A stretch of DNA of 10,380 nt from Neisseriaceae bacterium (GTDB lineage: Bacteria; Pseudomonadota; Gammaproteobacteria; Burkholderiales; UBA11063), in the NCBI GenBank assembly GCA_947470205.1, contig CANISK010000034.1:1-10380 (forward strand), written 5' to 3'. The position numbers were made by a program, and so were the translations under genes. The notes beneath the pieces are model-generated. The model was not told the origin of the DNA. It saw only the letters and a list, made by a program, of their open reading frames with translations, and did not search any database. Shown here in pieces: positions 990 through 9,147 of this stretch (positions are counted from its first letter, which is position 1; each line of letters opens with the position of its first letter).

Positions 990-1610
990 TTAAATTTCAT
1001 TATTTGATATTTCCATGATTTTCAATTGCTCTCCGTCCTGAGACACAATCGCAGGTACATGTTGTATTTTCAATTTTTGTGTATATTTACCATTCTGGTC
1101 ATAGAAAAACCAGACTTTAAATTGTTTATCCAATTTCATAAATGAGCCTTGAGTTAAAACAACTTTACTTATTACTGAATCAGTTTTTACGTGATTAACT
1201 GCCCATAGAACTTGTTTTGAATTATTCCCATTAATAAATAAAAGTTGCACATCGAATGGTTTATATTTTAATGCATTATATAATCCAGTTTTAGCAATCA
1301 CATGCCCACTACCATCGGTCAAATCATGTTTTAATTGAATCATTGGTTTGTAGTACCATGTTTTAGTTTCAACAGCATCTGTTACATTAGCTATTGGCTT
1401 TGGATTATTAATTTGATTTTTTGCATTAGCTACTGCTTGATTTTGAATTTGTTGCCATTGTCCATTTTTCATCATAACAGCTGCTTTTGCTTTTATCCAT
1501 TCAATCATATCTGGTTCAGCTATTGGATAAACTTTAGCAACAACTCCCAAATCTTCTGTATAACCAAAAAAAGACATTCCAATAAATAATAACGTTAATA
1601 ATATTTTCAT
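990..1610 (-). CDS. traW: TraW, F-type T4SS periplasmic pilus assembly protein
   Basis: TraW is a periplasmic protein needed for F-pilus assembly; it works with TrbC and TraU. This 206-residue product is of normal length for the family. A signal peptide covers residues 1-18 (MKILLTLLFIGMSFFGYT), and the mature protein starts with the family's DLGVVAKVYPIAEPDM segment. Further TraW features follow in order: TWYYKPMI (84-91), DGSGHVIAKTGLYNAL (99-114), LLFINGNNSKQVLWA (123-137), KVVLTQGS (149-156), and the C-terminal FYDQNGKYTQKLKIQHVPAIV (169-189). The ATG at 1610 shares one base with the stop of the upstream transglycosylase gene (TAATG), so translation is probably coupled. In F, traW lies well upstream of traN and directly before traU; here it is the second-last gene of the operon, downstream of traN. 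Confidence 0.93.
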   Translation of the reverse strand: MKILLTLLFIGMSFFGYTEDLGVVAKVYPIAEPDMIEWIKAKAAVMMKNGQWQQIQNQAVANAKNQINNPKPIANVTDAVETKTWYYKPMIQLKHDLTDGSGHVIAKTGLYNALKYKPFDVQLLFINGNNSKQVLWAVNHVKTDSVISKVVLTQGSFMKLDKQFKVWFFYDQNGKYTQKLKIQHVPAIVSQDGEQLKIMEISNNEI

Positions 1611-2089: not shown

Positions 2090-3751
2090 TTAATTGTTCT
2101 TTTGTTTCCATTCATTGATTATATTTATTGCATCATTTCCTGCTCTAGTTTGTGTTTTATTTTGAATATTCCCATTTGTAAAACTATTATTGTCAATCAT
2201 CTGATTAACATCAATGGAATTCATTAAATCATTAAAATAATTTCCTTTTGAAAAGTCAATCTGACTAATCATACCCACTGTAACCCCGCCACAAAGACCA
2301 TTTGTATGATTAATCTGGTCAGTGTATTTATTACCACCAGTATAAATATTTAGCAATCCTTGATCATAAGCAGCCAAATTAATATCTAAAGATACTTTTG
2401 AGGTAAAACAACACCATTGCTGTAAAGTTTGTCGTGGTTCACCACCAATACATTTATTGAATATTGGGTCTCTCATTGAACAATAAGCACAAAAATTAGG
2501 GTTTGTAAGTCCACCAGCCCACGCTAATTCACCTTTAATTAAATCACTTGCAGTAGCGTCATCGTCACCACCCTCACAATAGTCGGCAAAATGAACACAA
2601 AGACCATTAATTACTGGATGGTTTGGTGAATCATGCCACCCAAAATGATCACCGCCACTTGAACGAGTTATACCCTCATCAGCAAAAGTGATACTCTTAA
2701 TATTATTTGTGTCTGGTTCTGATTTTTGTCTATTCCAAGCCAAATTAACTGACACATCAGATAAATAAGACTTAAACGCAGTTAAACCCTTTAAATTCTG
2801 TGCAGTATCCTTATTGATAGTTACCGAAACAACTTGATTATTATTTACCCCTATATATTGATTTCTTGAATTATTACCATCAAAATTAATATCTTCATCT
2901 TGATTTACAATTTTACTTCCAGTGTAACGCTGTAAATTAACTGAATTATTAATACCATTATCATTGTCATTGGATAATCCGTAACTGATACTGCTGCCCA
3001 TAATGTTTACACCACCTGATGTTGCTTGAGAATATAAATTTCTGTCTGAAGCACCATAACCAGTTGGGACGTTTGCTTGGGTAAAAAAATCATGATGAAT
3101 CATACAATCTGCTCCATTATTATTCCAACTACCAGGTTGACCTGCTTGAAAAGCGTACATGTAACAGCTAAAATACTTTCCTGAAAATAAGGCACAACTC
3201 ATTGGATCATTTTTATCTGGACATTGCATATCCTGTTCCATTGCTTGCCCCATCTGAATATATGCAATTGCCTGTCCCATATTTTTAGCATTATCTGCAG
3301 ATGGGGGCTTGGGGTCAAAACATTTTTTTGCTGTCCCAGATTCGCTATTTGCACATACAACATTTGTACACACACGGCTTTCTACATCCGCATATCCACC
3401 AGCACAAGAATATTCACTTTGATATTTGTTGCATTTTCCAGTAATATAATCTTTATCCATACATGTATTTTTATTTAATGTACAGTCTGAATTTTTACGA
3501 TATGTTCCGCAGGTATCAACGGTATCCGTGCATAAAAACTGCTCTTGCACATTCCAACAACAATTCACACCTGTTAATCCATTCGCAACACACGCATCTG
3601 ACAATTTAAATGAAATACCATCAATAAATTTTACTGGTTGATTATCTATGCACTGTTTATTTATTAACTTACAATCTGCAAATACACAAAAATTTACTAT
3701 TGTTAAAAATATTGTTATAAAATTTTTGCATAATGTTAAGTTATTAATCAT
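2090..3751 (-). CDS. traN: TraN C-terminal part: secreted cysteine-rich mating-pair stabilisation protein
   Basis: TraN is the outer-membrane adhesin that stabilises mating pairs in F-type conjugation. This 553-residue product matches the region of F TraN after its tip domain. CWNVQEQFLC, CGTYRKNSDCTLNKNTC and YQSEYSC (65-116) are collinear with F's CWAYRDTYVT, CQTYTDNPACTLVSHQC and YATYSC. CAYCSMRDPIFNKC to WCCF (421-449) and LCGGVTVGMISQIDFSKGNY (486-505) match F's FCSKKVLGVCLEKKRSYC and CRGITVDELQKIQFNRLDF. It carries 26 cysteines from residue 27 onward, none between 217 and 384, where an Asn/Asp-rich insert lies. The frame is open back to 3811, but I start at ATG 3751. That start has AAAGGA seven bases upstream and gives a clean signal peptide ending FCVFA (residue 25). 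It overlaps the upstream stop by eight bases (ATGATTAA). Confidence 0.88.
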   Translation of the reverse strand: MINNLTLCKNFITIFLTIVNFCVFADCKLINKQCIDNQPVKFIDGISFKLSDACVANGLTGVNCCWNVQEQFLCTDTVDTCGTYRKNSDCTLNKNTCMDKDYITGKCNKYQSEYSCAGGYADVESRVCTNVVCANSESGTAKKCFDPKPPSADNAKNMGQAIAYIQMGQAMEQDMQCPDKNDPMSCALFSGKYFSCYMYAFQAGQPGSWNNNGADCMIHHDFFTQANVPTGYGASDRNLYSQATSGGVNIMGSSISYGLSNDNDNGINNSVNLQRYTGSKIVNQDEDINFDGNNSRNQYIGVNNNQVVSVTINKDTAQNLKGLTAFKSYLSDVSVNLAWNRQKSEPDTNNIKSITFADEGITRSSGGDHFGWHDSPNHPVINGLCVHFADYCEGGDDDATASDLIKGELAWAGGLTNPNFCAYCSMRDPIFNKCIGGEPRQTLQQWCCFTSKVSLDINLAAYDQGLLNIYTGGNKYTDQINHTNGLCGGVTVGMISQIDFSKGNYFNDLMNSIDVNQMIDNNSFTNGNIQNKTQTRAGNDAINIINEWKQKNN

Positions 3752-4751
3752 CAGCACATCCTTTTGTATATTGGTAATGTTTGACATAATTGTGGGTTTG
3801 TGGTCTATCAAAAGTTATTGACCAAGAAGTAAAAACTCCTCCGCCCACCCATGCTAACGTCAATCCTATCGTACATATTGATGTAGCACTACCTATACCA
3901 CAATTTTGTCCTGCTTCTTGATAAAATGCAATATTTCCACGTTGACTACCAAACCAATCCATATACCATTGCCCCAATAATCTTCGGGATGAGGTTGGAG
4001 TAACAATAATCGAATTAGTTGCACCTCTGCATGGTGTTACACCAGATGTTGCTCCCATTGTGATGGGCAAAAATCCATCGTCAAAAGAACCAGCATTACT
4101 AACAATCATAAACCATGCTCTGTCGCTTTGAGGTATCCATGCTCCACTTGATTGCCCTACTCCACAAACACCTGGACTATCTACCTCATGTAAGACTACT
4201 CCGTCTGCTGGAATTGGGGGAAGTTTTTCACTATACGGCACGATCGTATTACTACATTGATTCTGCTGCTTAACCCCAGTAATACAATTATGCATCGTGT
4301 TATTAATTGGGGCTTTTTTATGAATATATGAACAAGTTGCATCAGCAGGGTCTGGAGTTGTAGAAATCCAATACTTATCTGAGAACCCTTGTGTATATGC
4401 CTGTAATTGCCTTTGTGTATCTTTGTCTCCATACTTATTCAATGTAGTACATCTTGGGTCATCTTTGGTTTCACAATCCTTAATTGCACGCGTTCCTGAA
4501 TTGTAAAGATAATTTGGATCTCTTACTGTACTATTGTACATATCGTTTGCCCCGGCAGTTCCTACATTCGTATTTGTAGCAACAGTAGATTCAAATTTAT
4601 TATTTTGTCCATAACTTGTAATGTTACTATTTTGATTCAAATTTAATTGAAACTGATTTTGTTTCCCCAACTGGATTGCTTGATTAAACAATTCTATGTT
4701 ATCCGCATAGCAAAACACATTCACACATAGAAGAAAATAAAGTCGTTTCAC
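3744..4751 (-). CDS. traN: TraN N-terminal part: secreted tip-domain protein
   Basis: This 335-residue product corresponds to the front third of a large TraN. A short signal peptide (MKRLYFLLCVNVFCYA) is followed by FNQAIQLGK, an Asn/Gln-rich linker, YNSTVRDPNYLYNSG with CETKDDPRC (93-101), and a cysteine-containing globular region (140-332). In TraN the equivalent region holds the tip that contacts recipient outer-membrane proteins. Together with the next gene the two parts total about 890 residues, close to the longer TraN forms of other elements, and they join without overlap of homologous content. The start is GTG at 4751, overlapping the previous stop as GTGA; no strong ribosome binding site is visible, so translation probably depends on coupling. 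Assignment rests on the position before the cysteine-rich part and on weak N-terminal similarity, so it is less certain than its neighbour. It could instead be a separate adhesin. Confidence 0.72.
   Translation of the reverse strand: MKRLYFLLCVNVFCYADNIELFNQAIQLGKQNQFQLNLNQNSNITSYGQNNKFESTVATNTNVGTAGANDMYNSTVRDPNYLYNSGTRAIKDCETKDDPRCTTLNKYGDKDTQRQLQAYTQGFSDKYWISTTPDPADATCSYIHKKAPINNTMHNCITGVKQQNQCSNTIVPYSEKLPPIPADGVVLHEVDSPGVCGVGQSSGAWIPQSDRAWFMIVSNAGSFDDGFLPITMGATSGVTPCRGATNSIIVTPTSSRRLLGQWYMDWFGSQRGNIAFYQEAGQNCGIGSATSICTIGLTLAWVGGGVFTSWSITFDRPQTHNYVKHYQYTKGCADD
3759..3764 (-). promoter_or_regulatory. Strong ribosome binding site for the second TraN gene
   Basis: The minus strand reads AAAGGA with seven bases to the ATG at 3751, inside the last codons of the upstream gene. 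It shows that the second half of TraN is translated on its own, which argues against a simple frameshift error. Confidence 0.7.
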
Positions 4752-5275
4752 TTTGCATATACCATTAATAAATTGACTGTTGATTCATTATCAGTTTGTT
4801 CATTGCTCCATGTTATCGTTACCCGTACCTTTTTAAGTAAAAAAGTTTGATAGTCTAAGTATTCATTTGCTGATATTTGCTTATAAAACCCAAGAAAAGT
4901 ATACCCATTTAAATGCTGTAACTTTAACCCATTAGCTGTAATACTATAATGTACTGGTTTAGTTTTGTTCAAATCAAGGTTCACTTGATTTGCAACTGTT
5001 ATTCCGTCTACTGTAATATTAATTTGACTAATCTTGATTTTATTTACACCACTAATAATTAATTGCCATTGATTATTAAGTGTTACATTAATTCCAGATT
5101 GTGACAACGGTATATTATTTAATTCTTTAACAGTAACTACATTTATTGATTGAGTCAATGCTGATTCAAGAGTTGGTAAAGCCTGTAACTTATCATTAGT
5201 AATTGACGTTAAAGTGTCCGCCCCTACGTAGTGAGATAAAACCCCAACCAATATCATTATTTTTAATTTTTGCAT
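4748..5275 (-). CDS. Secreted protein of unknown function directly upstream of split traN
   Basis: The 175-residue product begins with a signal peptide (MQKLKIMILVGVLSHYVGA, residues 1-19). The mature part has no cysteine and alternates short polar and hydrophobic stretches (QWQLIISGVNKIKISQINITV, RVTITW, STVNLLMVY), which suggests a beta-sandwich fold. I do not recognise the family. The ATG at 5275 has AAGGG six bases upstream, next to the stop of the DsbA-like gene. The stop overlaps the GTG of the TraN N-terminal gene (GTGA), so the two are translationally coupled and their products may act together, for example as a chaperone or outer-membrane partner of the tip protein. That role is inference from position. 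Confidence 0.78.
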   Translation of the reverse strand: MQKLKIMILVGVLSHYVGADTLTSITNDKLQALPTLESALTQSINVVTVKELNNIPLSQSGINVTLNNQWQLIISGVNKIKISQINITVDGITVANQVNLDLNKTKPVHYSITANGLKLQHLNGYTFLGFYKQISANEYLDYQTFLLKKVRVTITWSNEQTDNESTVNLLMVYAK

Positions 5276-5287
5276 AATAAGCCCTTA

Positions 5288-5809
5288 TTAATTTGCCTCA
5301 ATGAGTGAATTTATAGCGTATTCGCCCTCTAATAATGTTGTTTGATCAATCAAAAACGTTGGTGTAGCTCTCACTTTATATTTATCAAGCATTTCTTGTG
5401 CATAGTTCATCTTCAATTTAATTTTTTGTTGCTCTTCAGGTAACCTTAACAATCGCTTCATAGCACTATTTTGCACTAACCCAGCTACATAACTTAATGT
5501 ACTAGAAGAATATGCCACCATGCCCTCAGAAACCGCTTTAAAATATGTATTTTTAAACTCTACCCCAACCCCAGAATCAATAGCTATATAATACAGAATC
5601 ATTGTATTCAATGCTTCTGGGTCTATATTAATGTCTAAATATTTAATTTTATTAGTTGCAACGTATTGATTAAGTTTCATATTAATTGAGGCACAATGCA
5701 CACACTTAAACGAAAAAAACTCTACAATTGTTTTAATTTTATTATTTTCAGCACTTGATGCAATGGCATTAAAAGCAAACAATATGAAACATACTAAAAT
5801 CTTTAACAA
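5288..5809 (-). CDS. DsbA-like periplasmic thiol:disulfide oxidoreductase (CVHC)
   Basis: A signal peptide (about residues 1-19) precedes a thioredoxin-fold protein of 173 residues. FFSFKCVHC (31-39) holds the CxxC active site directly after the first core strand, and RATPTFLI (147-154) holds the cis-proline loop opposite it. The long helical middle (60-145) is the insertion that separates DsbA-type from plain thioredoxins. CVHC resembles the CPHC of DsbA, which points to an oxidase. The probable substrates are the cysteine-rich TraU and TraN encoded around it. Translation starts at TTG 5809: an in-frame stop lies immediately upstream, no ATG fits, and GGGAG sits seven bases before it (5817-5821). 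F plasmid uses TrbB and TraF for comparable roles, but this protein is closer in layout to DsbA. Confidence 0.85.
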   Translation of the reverse strand: MLKILVCFILFAFNAIASSAENNKIKTIVEFFSFKCVHCASINMKLNQYVATNKIKYLDINIDPEALNTMILYYIAIDSGVGVEFKNTYFKAVSEGMVAYSSSTLSYVAGLVQNSAMKRLLRLPEEQQKIKLKMNYAQEMLDKYKVRATPTFLIDQTTLLEGEYAINSLIEAN

Positions 5810-5838: not shown

Positions 5839-6228
5839 TTATGGTTGACATATCACACCGTATTTGTCGTATAAAGCAGGAATACTCTCATTTGTTATAT
5901 ACACTCCATCCACATCTGCTATCCGTTTATAAACGTTATTTTTATAAGAATGAATTATAATTTTATTAACAACATTATTGATGCTATCTCTAATTACCTC
6001 TTGCTCTATTGTGTCTGGTAATTTTATATTCATGTTTTTTAAAATCATAATAAATGTGTCTAATTTTTTTGGATGACTATCTTTTATATCTAAATTAGAC
6101 CAGAATGGATTATCAATATCGTCTTCTTTCTCAATAACCAAAAAGAAACCTTGCAACGGCTTATCCCAACCCAATAAAATGTGAGTCTTTTTATCATGAT
6201 GTAAAGTAAAAAAATGATGTTGTGACAT
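5839..6228 (-). CDS. Conserved-looking cytoplasmic protein of unknown function
   Basis: The 129-residue product lacks a signal peptide and transmembrane segment, unusual in an operon otherwise dominated by exported proteins. It starts MSQHHFFTLHHDKKTHILLG, then WDKPLQGFFLVIEKED, with a later helical region and the end GVYITNESIPALYDKYGVICQP. The alternating N-terminal strands suggest a small alpha/beta fold. I have a vague memory of similar short proteins (FFT...GWDRPLQGFF...) in other bacterial accessory regions, but I cannot name a family. The ATG at 6228 has GGGA seven bases upstream, and gaps to both neighbours are under 30 bp. It lies between the two disulfide enzymes, and nothing in it suggests a redox role: it has a single cysteine near the end. 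Confidence 0.75.
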   Translation of the reverse strand: MSQHHFFTLHHDKKTHILLGWDKPLQGFFLVIEKEDDIDNPFWSNLDIKDSHPKKLDTFIMILKNMNIKLPDTIEQEVIRDSINNVVNKIIIHSYKNNVYKRIADVDGVYITNESIPALYDKYGVICQP

Positions 6229-6256: not shown

Positions 6257-7066
6257 TTATTTTTTTAAATATTCATTTACAGCTTCAATATCTGCACCCA
6301 TAATTAAATCCCCAGCTCCAGTTATAATTACTGGTGTTGCATTTATATTTAATACTCGTGCTGTCGAGCCTGTTCTTTCTAATACTGGTTCAATGTTACA
6401 GTCTGGAATTAATTTAACATCTGGGTTCTCATTATTTTTAACCATATAATCTTCTAACGTCCTAATTGAATTTGTTGAGCATAAAATATTTTTGCTGTGT
6501 TCTTTAGCATTAGGGTGCATTGATAACGGCATCAACACATAGTATATATTTGCTTTTTTACCTATATTATGTGATGAAATTTGTTGCTCCAATTGTCTAC
6601 AATAGGGACAATCTGGATCAATAAATATGATCAACTTTTTATTAACCTTGTTAGGTGACTTAACCATAATCGCATCCGCAATATTAATTTTTGAAATATC
6701 TATCTTAGGTGTATTTATCTTTTGTAGCCGTTCTGTAATATCATCTTGTGTATATATGTTAAACATATGCCCAGCAATTAAATAAGGCGAACTTAAATTA
6801 CCGTAGACCAAATTAACTCCAATTACTAAAGCATATGTATCTGGATATGGTGTGGTATATACACTATCAATTGTGGTTGTCGGCAACAATTGATGAAAAT
6901 AGTTTAAAACTTTTTTATCCATAGTTGTTTGTGGCGCAAAATTAGCAGATATTGTTTTAGGTGCTGCAAGATTAGTCTTGTTTGTAGTTGCGTCTGCCAT
7001 TGCACTGTTAAATAAACTTACGGCAGACAAAATGAGCAGTAATTGTTTAATTTGTTTTAGCTTCAT
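6257..7066 (-). CDS. DsbC-like periplasmic disulfide isomerase (CPYC)
   Basis: DsbC-type enzymes repair wrongly paired disulfides in the periplasm. This 269-residue product has a signal peptide (residues 1-24, ending SAMA), an N-terminal domain (50-125) in the position of the DsbC dimerisation domain, and a thioredoxin domain with IDPDCPYC (149-156) and the cis-proline loop ATPVII (243-248). A second cysteine pair (C196, C223) matches the structural disulfide of DsbC. The CPYC active site, GDLIMGA segment and overall length fit the DsbC/TraF-associated isomerases found in many F-type and related transfer regions. The ATG at 7066 has AAAGGA eight bases upstream (7075-7080). It follows trbC with a 3-bp gap. 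Isomerase activity is most useful for TraN and TraU, which carry many cysteines. Confidence 0.92.
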   Translation of the reverse strand: MKLKQIKQLLLILSAVSLFNSAMADATTNKTNLAAPKTISANFAPQTTMDKKVLNYFHQLLPTTTIDSVYTTPYPDTYALVIGVNLVYGNLSSPYLIAGHMFNIYTQDDITERLQKINTPKIDISKINIADAIMVKSPNKVNKKLIIFIDPDCPYCRQLEQQISSHNIGKKANIYYVLMPLSMHPNAKEHSKNILCSTNSIRTLEDYMVKNNENPDVKLIPDCNIEPVLERTGSTARVLNINATPVIITGAGDLIMGADIEAVNEYLKK

Positions 7067-7069
7067 TGT

Positions 7070-7969
7070 TTATTTCCTTTTATTGTAAAAATTATCATTC
7101 TCTAATACATGTAGCTCATTTGTAGCTATTTGCGACAACTCTGTAATCTTCGAATTCTGCAGTTGGGTTAGTGCATATTGAACTGGCACATCACCACTCA
7201 CCTTTACATAAGTTGGTGATACATTACACGCTGTTTTCATCAAATCTTGCGATGATTTATATAATGCAAATGTTGGTACACTATCAATCGCAAGTGCTTT
7301 AAATAGCGTTGGATTTATCATTATTCCAACAGTGTTATCTCCTTTTAACCCATAAAAATACTTATACGTTTTAACATATGAACCATTCATTACACCCCTT
7401 ACAATAAAAACTGCCCCAGTGCTTGATGATTGTGCCATTAGATTAATAATCGTTTTTTTAGGCATTGAGCTACTTATAAAAATTAATAATTTACTTTGTC
7501 CGAGATTGGATTTGGAATTTTTTAACATCGCATTATAATCGCTGATGGTTTGATTGATATCAATGGGTGTATGATTGGAAAAACTATCAGTATATTGTTT
7601 AGCGTCACTAACAATTGATTCAGAATACAACCGATACTTTTCTCCAGTAGGTAATTTAATATTTAATGGTTGAATATGTTTAAACACTTCATTTGCTTGT
7701 TGTATCTCAGATTCAGTTGATGATAATTCTAATTGCTTTAGTTTAATTGTGGAAAGTTCTTTTTGTGTCGGCTGGGCTTTTGCAATAGCATCATTTCCCT
7801 GTTTCATAATTTCACTTTGTGTTTGTTGCAATTGTTCATGATTTAATATGACTGTATTATCCGCATATAGTTGACTAACAAGTCCAAAGCAACCAATAGT
7901 AAATATATTTCTAAACATGACATTAATTTTACTTTGTATTTTTTGGCTAATTTTTATATTTGCTTGCAT
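7070..7969 (-). CDS. trbC: TrbC, F-type pilin assembly protein
   Basis: TrbC is a periplasmic protein needed for F-pilus assembly and acts with TraW and TraU. The C-terminal half carries the family core: LLIFISSSMPKKTIINLMAQ, then GAVFIVRGVMNGSYVKT, then NTVGIMINPTLFKALAIDSVPTFALY (about residues 161-237 from the ATG at 7969). The N-terminal half is Gln-rich and helical, as usual for TrbC. Three starts are possible. ATG 7969 has GAAAG five bases upstream and lies nine bases past the traU stop; ATG 7918 gives a shorter, cleaner signal peptide (MFRNIFTIGCFGLVSQLYA); TTG 7993 lies inside traU. I use 7969, but 7918 is nearly as likely. In some elements TrbC is fused to TraW; here the two are separate and far apart. 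Confidence 0.92.
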   Translation of the reverse strand: MQANIKISQKIQSKINVMFRNIFTIGCFGLVSQLYADNTVILNHEQLQQTQSEIMKQGNDAIAKAQPTQKELSTIKLKQLELSSTESEIQQANEVFKHIQPLNIKLPTGEKYRLYSESIVSDAKQYTDSFSNHTPIDINQTISDYNAMLKNSKSNLGQSKLLIFISSSMPKKTIINLMAQSSSTGAVFIVRGVMNGSYVKTYKYFYGLKGDNTVGIMINPTLFKALAIDSVPTFALYKSSQDLMKTACNVSPTYVKVSGDVPVQYALTQLQNSKITELSQIATNELHVLENDNFYNKRK

Positions 7970-7977
7970 ACACACTT

Positions 7978-9147
7978 TCACAAAAAACAACAATCACGTT
8001 CATGATACATCATGTAACTAAAATCTTCCCCCGTGTATGGGAAAGAAGCCCCAGAGTTCCATAATACATCGGTTTCACCAAATGAATTACAGCATACTGG
8101 AGTATAGGCAGTTTGTGGCACAGGAAATCCCATTGAATACTTCCACTCCGATTTATCCATAAACATGTCGGGAATTAAGTTATTGCACATACCAAAAATT
8201 CCAGTCGTGTAATCTTCTATACCCATCCTATGAACCAATCCAGTAACTTTTTCAGCAGATAAAATCGTGGTTTGTACAGCATACGCACTATCTGAATTAT
8301 TACCATCTAATGGATATAATGAACCTTGACATCCACCACACCAAAACAATGCTTTACTTGGATTGCTTGCAGATGCAGGGTTGGTTGGTGTTGTCAGTCT
8401 GATATAATATGGTGTAGGTAGGATCGGCGTATTGTCTGTTGGAATATTTGGCAAACTAGTAGCAATACAATCAGCCCCACAAGCCAATTGTGCTGGCAAT
8501 GAACTAAATAAAACAACTTCAGGTGAGAAAATAATAGATAATGAGTCATCATTCCAGGTTGGGTCAACCTCTGACATAAACATTAAATCCATTGATTTAC
8601 TCATACCTAGATTGCAACCAGTATCAATAATACCCAAAATCGCCATTATAGGATCCATAAACCAATGCACTTGATAAAAGCTGCTTTGCGTTTCCAATCC
8701 ATGCTTCTCATCTCCATATCCAGGTGCTGGAAGTAACCCAGATAGTCCTGCAGACATATCAACCCCACCCAAACCAACCATACAAAAAGGTGACTTGGTT
8801 ACATCAACAAATCTTGATGGTTCATAATATGACATCATCAACCCTATTGGCATTAGTGCCACATCTCGCTCAGGACAAGCACATAACCCCGCAGGTAATC
8901 TACCGGGCACGACTCCAGGTATTCCAGGTGGAATAATTTTGTCATCATCTATAATCGTTCCACCTTTTTGATTGCCAATATTAAATACCATTGGTATTGG
9001 ACCTATAAACATAGGAAACAAACATGACCAACAAATATCTGTAATTGGGTTCATGAAACTACCATGACAATTAGTTGGTACTGCATAACTATTGAAAGTA
9101 GTACCCACCAACATTGCACCAACAATAGATAACATTAACTTTTTCAA
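7978..9147 (-). CDS. traU: TraU, F-type T4SS periplasmic assembly/mating protein
   Basis: TraU is a cysteine-rich periplasmic protein needed for DNA transfer and efficient pilus assembly. This 389-residue product has a signal peptide (residues 1-22, ending SYA) and then the family signature GSFMNPITDICWSCLFPMFIG (29-49). Further TraU features are GLCACPERD, FWCGGCQGSLYPLDG and the C-terminal cysteine pairs (PVCCNS, DCCFL). It has 16 cysteines, so it probably depends on the two Dsb-like enzymes encoded downstream. The start is TTG at 9147, directly after the stop of the small upstream gene, with AGGTG five bases before it (9153-9157). An ATG four codons later lacks such a site and would remove the basic KK of the signal peptide. 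Length is slightly above F TraU (330). Confidence 0.95.
   Translation of the reverse strand: MKKLMLSIVGAMLVGTTFNSYAVPTNCHGSFMNPITDICWSCLFPMFIGPIPMVFNIGNQKGGTIIDDDKIIPPGIPGVVPGRLPAGLCACPERDVALMPIGLMMSYYEPSRFVDVTKSPFCMVGLGGVDMSAGLSGLLPAPGYGDEKHGLETQSSFYQVHWFMDPIMAILGIIDTGCNLGMSKSMDLMFMSEVDPTWNDDSLSIIFSPEVVLFSSLPAQLACGADCIATSLPNIPTDNTPILPTPYYIRLTTPTNPASASNPSKALFWCGGCQGSLYPLDGNNSDSAYAVQTTILSAEKVTGLVHRMGIEDYTTGIFGMCNNLIPDMFMDKSEWKYSMGFPVPQTAYTPVCCNSFGETDVLWNSGASFPYTGEDFSYMMYHERDCCFL

What the first reader, a model, noticed from the sequence alone, without database searches (positions are those of the whole stretch)
2090..4751. TraN is divided into two separately secreted proteins at a domain boundary
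The sequence of an approximately 890-residue TraN is encoded by two genes. The first carries a signal peptide and the region equivalent to the recipient-contacting tip; the second carries its own signal peptide and the cysteine-rich base, collinear with F TraN from about the CWAYRDTYVT segment on. The second gene has a strong ribosome binding site and an ATGATTAA overlap, so it looks like a maintained arrangement, not a sequencing error. Gaining a signal peptide at the junction would allow the tip to be exchanged independently of the base, a modular mating-specificity system.
Basis: partly seen in the sequence, partly recalled or inferred. Interest (0 to 1): 0.72.

Follow-up and report, generated by a model that had tools for sequence, protein, structure and literature searches.

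The report
TraN adhesin split between two genes
The protein that lets a donor bacterium grip a mating partner during F-type DNA transfer appears to be made here as two separately secreted halves, the tip of the first half has been swapped, and the same two-gene layout turns out to be common in other bacteria, where that half is usually labelled only as a protein of unknown function.

Summary
On the minus strand, gene A (4751-3744, 335 aa) and gene B (3751-2090, 553 aa) are two secreted, overlapping genes that together cover TraN. A holds the N-terminal base segment, a three-cysteine neck and a predicted beta-sandwich tip. B holds the cysteine-rich C-terminal base. The split is not local: in 11 of 14 other Burkholderiales genomes with a match (399 searched) a B-type TraN follows an A-type gene, and finished plasmids such as pALIDE201 show it, with A called 'hypothetical protein'. 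Natural A-B fusions lacking the second signal peptide make up 6 of 49 close rows and need 6 changes on the tree, so A and B act as one unit. Tips are exchanged, but in the window the breakpoints lie inside A (residues ~175 and ~320). A's N-terminal half varies with B, so the gene junction is not the exchange point. Some relatives carry a second, related tip inside B: a two-gene counterpart of the two-tip TraN-V. Known kind (TraN), new variant (two-gene, sometimes one tip per protein). Nine searches of an open-access library found no report of a split TraN. Function and complex formation are inferred.

The parts
3744..4751 (-). Gene A: secreted N-terminal half of TraN (signal peptide, N-terminal base segment, three-Cys neck, tip), 335 aa, GTG start overlapping the upstream gene by 4 nt
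4254..4703 (-). Gene A residues 17-166: conserved N-terminal base segment ending in the neck Cys140-Cys156-Cys166
   Evidence: neck cysteines invariant in the 22 rows of A1; profile match to Burkholderiales A genes E 4.6e-6, probability 86.5%; neck motif also in F, RA1, an IncH-type TraN and single-chain TraN
3765..4247 (-). Gene A residues 169-329: tip domain, predicted beta-sandwich
   Evidence: block means of pLDDT 73-95 from residue 171 to 330; tip classes
3792..4229 (-). Replaced tip segment (about residues 175-320), P0053-like inside a P0052-like gene
   Evidence: 42:3 against 12:36 sites, Fisher p 7e-12; five 60-base bins at 55-63% identity to L015 (window about 4095-3796), the lowest within A and B
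3744..3751 (-). A/B overlap ATGATTAA
3759..3764 (-). AAAGGA ribosome-binding site of gene B
   Evidence: sequence
2090..3751 (-). Gene B: secreted cysteine-rich C-terminal base of TraN, 553 aa
3677..3751 (-). Gene B signal peptide (residues 1-25)
   Evidence: cleavage site by inspection (VFA|DC)
3320..3673 (-). Gene B Cys repeat (residues 27-144), counterpart of the F CWAYRDTYVT region
5288..5809 (-). DsbA/thioredoxin-like protein of the same gene run
6257..7066 (-). DsbC-like disulfide isomerase of the same gene run
7070..7993 (-). TrbC
7978..9147 (-). TraU
990..1610 (-). TraW
   Evidence: 172.2 bits, just under the cut-off of 174.75

Best explanation
A and B are the two halves of an F-type TraN, the outer-membrane protein that stabilises mating pairs. 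[quoted passage not shown] Recombination replaces the tip segment inside gene A while the rest of A and all of B stay together as the base. Shown here by sequence: homology, gene order, signal segments, repeated natural fusion, tip replacement. Inferred: export, disulfides, complex, receptor binding.
For: Single-chain TraN of other Gammaproteobacteria is matched by an A-type profile over nearly its whole length (hmm 5-386, residues 36-381, E 7e-23), followed at once by the B profile (370-673). F TraN 1-172 matches an A gene (E 5e-8), and its C-terminal part matches B genes (E down to 1e-33). In 6 of 49 close rows A and B are one protein with no signal peptide at the joint; the tree needs 6 changes, starred branches force at least 5, and a single fused clade is rejected (p-AU 3e-45). 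A's N segment tracks B (0.69), its tip only weakly (0.25). Neck cysteines shared with F, RA1 and others. Tip modelled as a beta-sandwich, as described for TraN tips (PMC9246713 and PMC10516633, passages). pALIDE201 has traW-traU-trbC-A-B-(hypothetical)-traF-traH-traG.
Against: The window's A matches the F-like single-chain profile only at the neck (E 9e-4, probability 23%), and its class of tip aligned with neither that profile nor the Burkholderiales A profile. A hits no TraN family model; B stays far under the curated cut-offs. No two-chain structure was predicted; the fused model is only moderate (pLDDT 69.7, pTM 0.50, tip poor) and its coordinates could not be inspected. Some B genes have no A-type neighbour in the stretch fetched (G101, G181, G177, second copy in G042).
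Confidence: 0.83

Rival explanations
1. B alone is the whole TraN of this lineage, and A is a separate co-transcribed adhesin or accessory protein with its own role.
For: Where the plasmid records name one of the two TraN, it is B; four B genes without an A-type neighbour were seen; A hits no TraN model.
Against: A-type profile covers the N half of single-chain TraN; six fusions in register; A's N segment varies with B; shared neck.
Confidence: 0.1
2. The split is itself an adaptation for tip exchange: the second start and signal peptide free the 3' end of the tip from staying in frame with the base.
For: Tips are exchanged, and the state with a separate B is the commoner one among close rows (37 separate plus 6 insert of 49).
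Against: Both breakpoints found in the window lie inside A; fused and single-chain TraN vary their tips too (PMC9246713, passages). A neutral balance of fission and fusion explains the layouts as well.
Confidence: 0.2
3. Annotation or assembly artefact: one traN broken by a frameshift.
For: A single chain of 833-868 aa exists in six relatives (P0010, P0023, P0039, P0043, P0045, P0047).
Against: Own signal segment on 41 of 41 complete unfused B; same layout in finished plasmids of isolates; 19 of 20 genome junctions printed overlap, in keeping with coupled genes.
Confidence: 0.01
4. The tip divergence in the window is fast evolution under selection, not import of a foreign segment.
For: Surface-exposed receptor-binding domains often evolve fast (established knowledge).
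Against: The tip is closer to P0053 than to the otherwise nearest relative (36 against 12 sites); silent changes are also raised, 41% against 20% in B (p 4e-6); other relatives have unrelated tips on near-identical N segments.
Confidence: 0.07

Closest known systems
F-type TraN, short form (TraN-S; F, R100, pKpQIL)
   Same: N-terminal base segment, neck, variable tip, Cys-rich C-terminal base in the same order; same place after trbC in F and in the split plasmid pALIDE201
   Different: One chain of 550-660 aa there; two secreted chains here, with a tip that does not match theirs in sequence; in the window four genes stand between trbC and A
TraN-M and TraN-L (IncA/C RA1, IncH R27)
   Same: Base plus one beta-sandwich tip that starts a few residues after the third neck Cys (RA1: Cys224, tip from 230 in PMC13104618 Table 1)
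   Different: Single chains of 880-1,070 aa
TraN-V of Acinetobacter baumannii plasmid pABAY10001
   Same: Base with two tips; order N-tip1-Cys repeat-tip2-Cys repeat-C-terminus, as in the 'insert' relatives (motif order by inspection)
   Different: One chain of 891 aa there; in the relatives tip 1 is on A and tip 2 on B. The window itself has only one tip
Two-gene TraN of Burkholderiales and Pseudomonas plasmids (pALIDE201, pSTY, pBVIE01)
   Same: Same split point, overlapping or adjacent genes (own signal peptide on both halves read for pALIDE201 and pSTY)
   Different: Not described as split in the papers seen; A is mostly called hypothetical (28 of 30 listed records) and in 2 of 40 records of another listing 'conjugative transfer aggregate stability protein'

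Membership tests
F-type TraN | Cys-rich C-terminal base collinear with F TraN | tested here: met
   B 26-201 with F 304-458, E 7.5e-8; 430-516 with F 505-580, E 6.5e-6
F-type TraN | N-terminal segment and three-Cys neck before the tip | tested here: met
   A against Burkholderiales A profile E 4.6e-6; that profile covers the N half of single-chain TraN, E 7e-23; neck motif; directly against the F-like profile only the neck aligns, E 9e-4
F-type TraN | Variable beta-sandwich tip after the neck | tested here: met
F-type TraN | One polypeptide | tested here: not met
   two genes, two signal peptides
F-type TraN | Score over curated NCBIfam cut-offs | tested here: not met
   B 33.9 and 32.4 bits against 1267 and 604; A none
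F-type TraN | Place in an F-type tra gene run | tested here: met
   TraU, TrbC, Dsb-like, A, B, TraW in the window; F-type traEKBVC and trbI-S26-traF-traH runs on other contigs of the genome (names other than TraC from position and inspection)
F-type TraN | Outer-membrane location and mating-pair stabilisation through a recipient receptor | not testable with these tools
   -
TraN-V (two tips) | Two distinct tip domains | tested here: not met
   Window B has no insert (553 aa); 6 of 49 close rows do

The most novel reading that the evidence does not exclude
F-type conjugation systems of this lineage use a two-protein mating adhesin in which each protein can carry its own tip, and tips are drawn from a shared pool: the same tip module is found at the end of A in some systems and inside B in others (65% identity over 121 aa, P0079 and P0006), beside an A with a different tip. 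A donor would then grip recipients through two exchangeable receptors presented by two subunits of one base.
Probability: 0.45. Interest if true: 0.75.

Novelty: new variant of a known kind. Interest (0 to 1): 0.62.

Why it matters
The TraN tip decides which recipients a conjugative element can mate with, and a recent survey collected TraN by its annotated name (PMC13104618, methods section), which in split systems finds at best the base. A 2023 review says TraN of about 600 aa occurs only in IncF plasmids and that in other plasmids other mechanisms act (PMC10516633, passages). If the 'hypothetical' gene before traN is the tip-bearing half, the receptor-binding part of many Burkholderiales, Pseudomonas and some alphaproteobacterial elements can now be read from sequence, and tip replacement can be followed in genomes.

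Full report
What is there. On the minus strand of the window (10,380 bases, the whole of contig C34 of a 1.43-Mb draft genome) the gene order is TraU, TrbC, a DsbC-like protein, a 129-aa ORF, a DsbA/thioredoxin-like protein, a 175-aa secreted protein, gene A, gene B, a lytic transglycosylase and TraW. A runs from 4751 to 3744, B from 3751 to 2090. They overlap by ATGATTAA, with AAAGGA seven bases before the B start. Both begin with a signal peptide (by inspection for A; hydrophobic peak 2.54 for B). The named relatives are drafts of uncultured Neisseriales/Burkholderiales bacteria (3 loci).

B is the C-terminal part of TraN. NCBIfam TraN models match it at E 8e-9 and 3e-8, far under their cut-offs. 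A profile of B aligns with a profile of ten single-chain TraN in two stretches, B 26-201 with F 304-458 and B 430-516 with F 505-580.

A is the N-terminal part, including the tip. This was shown in steps. First, an order-wide search with the B profile hit 17 of 399 genomes, 3 of them of the window's genus. Of the other 14, G357 (a fragment) was not examined. In the 13 that were, TraN starts with its own signal peptide at the B position (by inspection), and in 11 an A-type gene lies directly upstream; in G101 and G181 none was seen. A in G130 and G135 was found by profile; A in the other nine genomes had been picked by position and built that profile (ten sequences), so their own profile matches prove nothing. 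Second, that A-type profile was turned on TraN genes that had no part in it: it covers nearly the whole N half of single-chain TraN in G702 and G529 (36-381 of 677, E 7e-23; 116-460 of 756, E 3e-20), and the B profile follows directly. It also hit single-chain frames of G648 and G931, but not the other single-chain TraN searched. F TraN 1-172 matches an A-type gene at E 5e-8. Third, the N-terminal 200 residues of the window's family match the A-type profile at E 4.6e-6, probability 86.5%. Fourth, a neck of three cysteines (140, 156, 166 in the window) recurs with similar spacing in F, RA1, an IncH-type TraN, Burkholderiales A genes and single-chain TraN (11 sequences looked at). In RA1 the published tip starts at residue 230, six after the third neck Cys. 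The window's tip was predicted as a beta-sandwich (strands from residue 169 to 329, block means of pLDDT 73-95 from 171 to 330), while the N-terminal part was poor when folded alone.

A and B are one functional unit. The close set is the window B, two genus loci and 50 database homologues (53 rows, two of them duplicates), less 4 fragments: 49 rows, of which 37 are separate B proteins, 6 are longer B proteins with an insert and 6 are A-B fusions. 'Separate' is judged from length and own signal peptide. An A partner was seen in the window, L015 and L012 and, by equal longest-contig length, for nine database pairs, one of them L015 (P0006/P0064 also carry names of one assembly); for the rest it was not checked. 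The fusions lack the second signal peptide. They sit in different places of the B tree: six changes are needed, starred branches force five, and a single clade is rejected. Change counts cannot tell gain from loss, but the fusions are nested among separate forms, so repeated fusion is the simpler reading.

The split is widespread. In class- and phylum-wide samples (26 of 369 and 21 of 398 genomes with a match, the window's own included) 14 of 25 and 11 of 20 other genomes were classed single-chain. A-type genes precede B in G720 and G532 (class) and in G042, G865 and G1070 (phylum; G042 was already counted in the order); G503 looks split by position only. The rest were cut by contig or locus ends, lacked an A-type neighbour or were arranged otherwise. 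In a 50-row tree (26 single, 20 split, 4 B-only) ten split and the four B-only rows fall in one mainly Burkholderiales group (support 80/81, not starred); the window's genus, G130 with G374, G865, G532, G503 and G1070 stand apart; six changes between single and split, with long-branch warnings (G014 was scored split although its A and B lie on different contigs). Finished plasmids show it: pALIDE201 has traW-traU-trbC-[432-aa hypothetical]-[TraN, 414 aa, 4-nt overlap]-hypothetical-traF-traH-traG; in pSTY and pBVIE01 A and B are 12 and 25 nt apart. In 28 of the 30 listed plasmid records (459 matched) the A match is annotated hypothetical or conserved hypothetical; in 2 of 40 listed records of another query (401 matched) it is 'conjugative transfer aggregate stability protein'. 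Of 20 genome junctions printed, 19 overlap, eleven of them by exactly 4 nt; L040 has a 4-nt gap (13, with L015 and L036 read from the sequence; 7, read from the sequence).

Tips are exchanged, inside A. Tips fall into several unrelated sequence classes. P0054 and P0067 have N segments 91% identical and unrelated tips; L012 and P0075 83%. The window shows it directly. Its N segment sides with P0052 over P0053 at 42 to 3 sites and B sides with P0001 over P0002 at 81 to 8, but the tip sides with P0053 at 36 to 12; the switch falls at about residues 174-179 and reverses at about 319-321. Nucleotide identity to L015 is 55-63% in five bins of the tip and mostly 80-100% in the rest of A and B, apart from 75% in one flanking tip bin and 65% in the bins at the start and the end of B. 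Silent change is 41% in the tip, 29% in A's N segment, 20% in B. Across 17 systems (136 pairs, not independent; 6 of the systems are fused) N identity follows B (0.69) and tip similarity does so weakly (0.25). In the window the breakpoints thus sit just after the neck and just before the end of A, not at the gene junction.

A second tip. In 6 of 49 close rows B has an insert of 286-309 residues after its first Cys repeat. The published two-tip TraN-V has the order N, tip 1, Cys repeat, tip 2, Cys repeat, C-terminus (by inspection); an A gene aligns with its residues 1-265 and a B gene with 548-891. The insert relatives have this order with the cut after tip 1. That both tips work there is inference.

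Mechanism and limits. The best reading is a two-subunit TraN: A's N segment and B form the base, the tip of A binds the recipient. Export, disulfide formation by the adjacent Dsb-like proteins, complex formation and receptor binding are inferred from TraN biology (PMC9246713, passages; PMC13104618, abstract, passages and sections 5, 11, 13). The fused model is only moderate (pLDDT 69.7, pTM 0.50) and no coordinates were available, so A-B packing was not tested. Whether the split has an advantage is open.

Noticed in passing
4748-5275 (minus strand): A 175-aa secreted protein without Pfam or NCBIfam match overlaps gene A by 4 nt (GTGA); L015 and L012 have a 175- and 170-aa gene in the same place, so three genes look translationally coupled.
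   Followed up: partly
5839-6228 (minus strand): A 129-aa ORF lies between the two Dsb-like genes; the nearest relative L015 has no gene there and the sequence does not align.
   Followed up: no
L107, L108, L117, L118 (G000 contigs C93 and C53): The genome has two F-type TraC ATPases over the curated cut-off in two tra runs, but only one B and one A match were found; the second TraN may be missing from the draft.
   Followed up: partly
L012 5298-6407: A 370-aa TraC-like ATPase matches only TraC 417-719; a full TraC lies on another contig of that genome, so this may be a short extra copy.
   Followed up: partly
L029, L035, L076, L094: B-type TraN genes with no A-type gene in the stretch fetched; orphan bases, or A too divergent or too far away to see.
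   Followed up: no
L051, L069: TraN-like genes of G632 and G446 seem divided at a different point.
   Followed up: no
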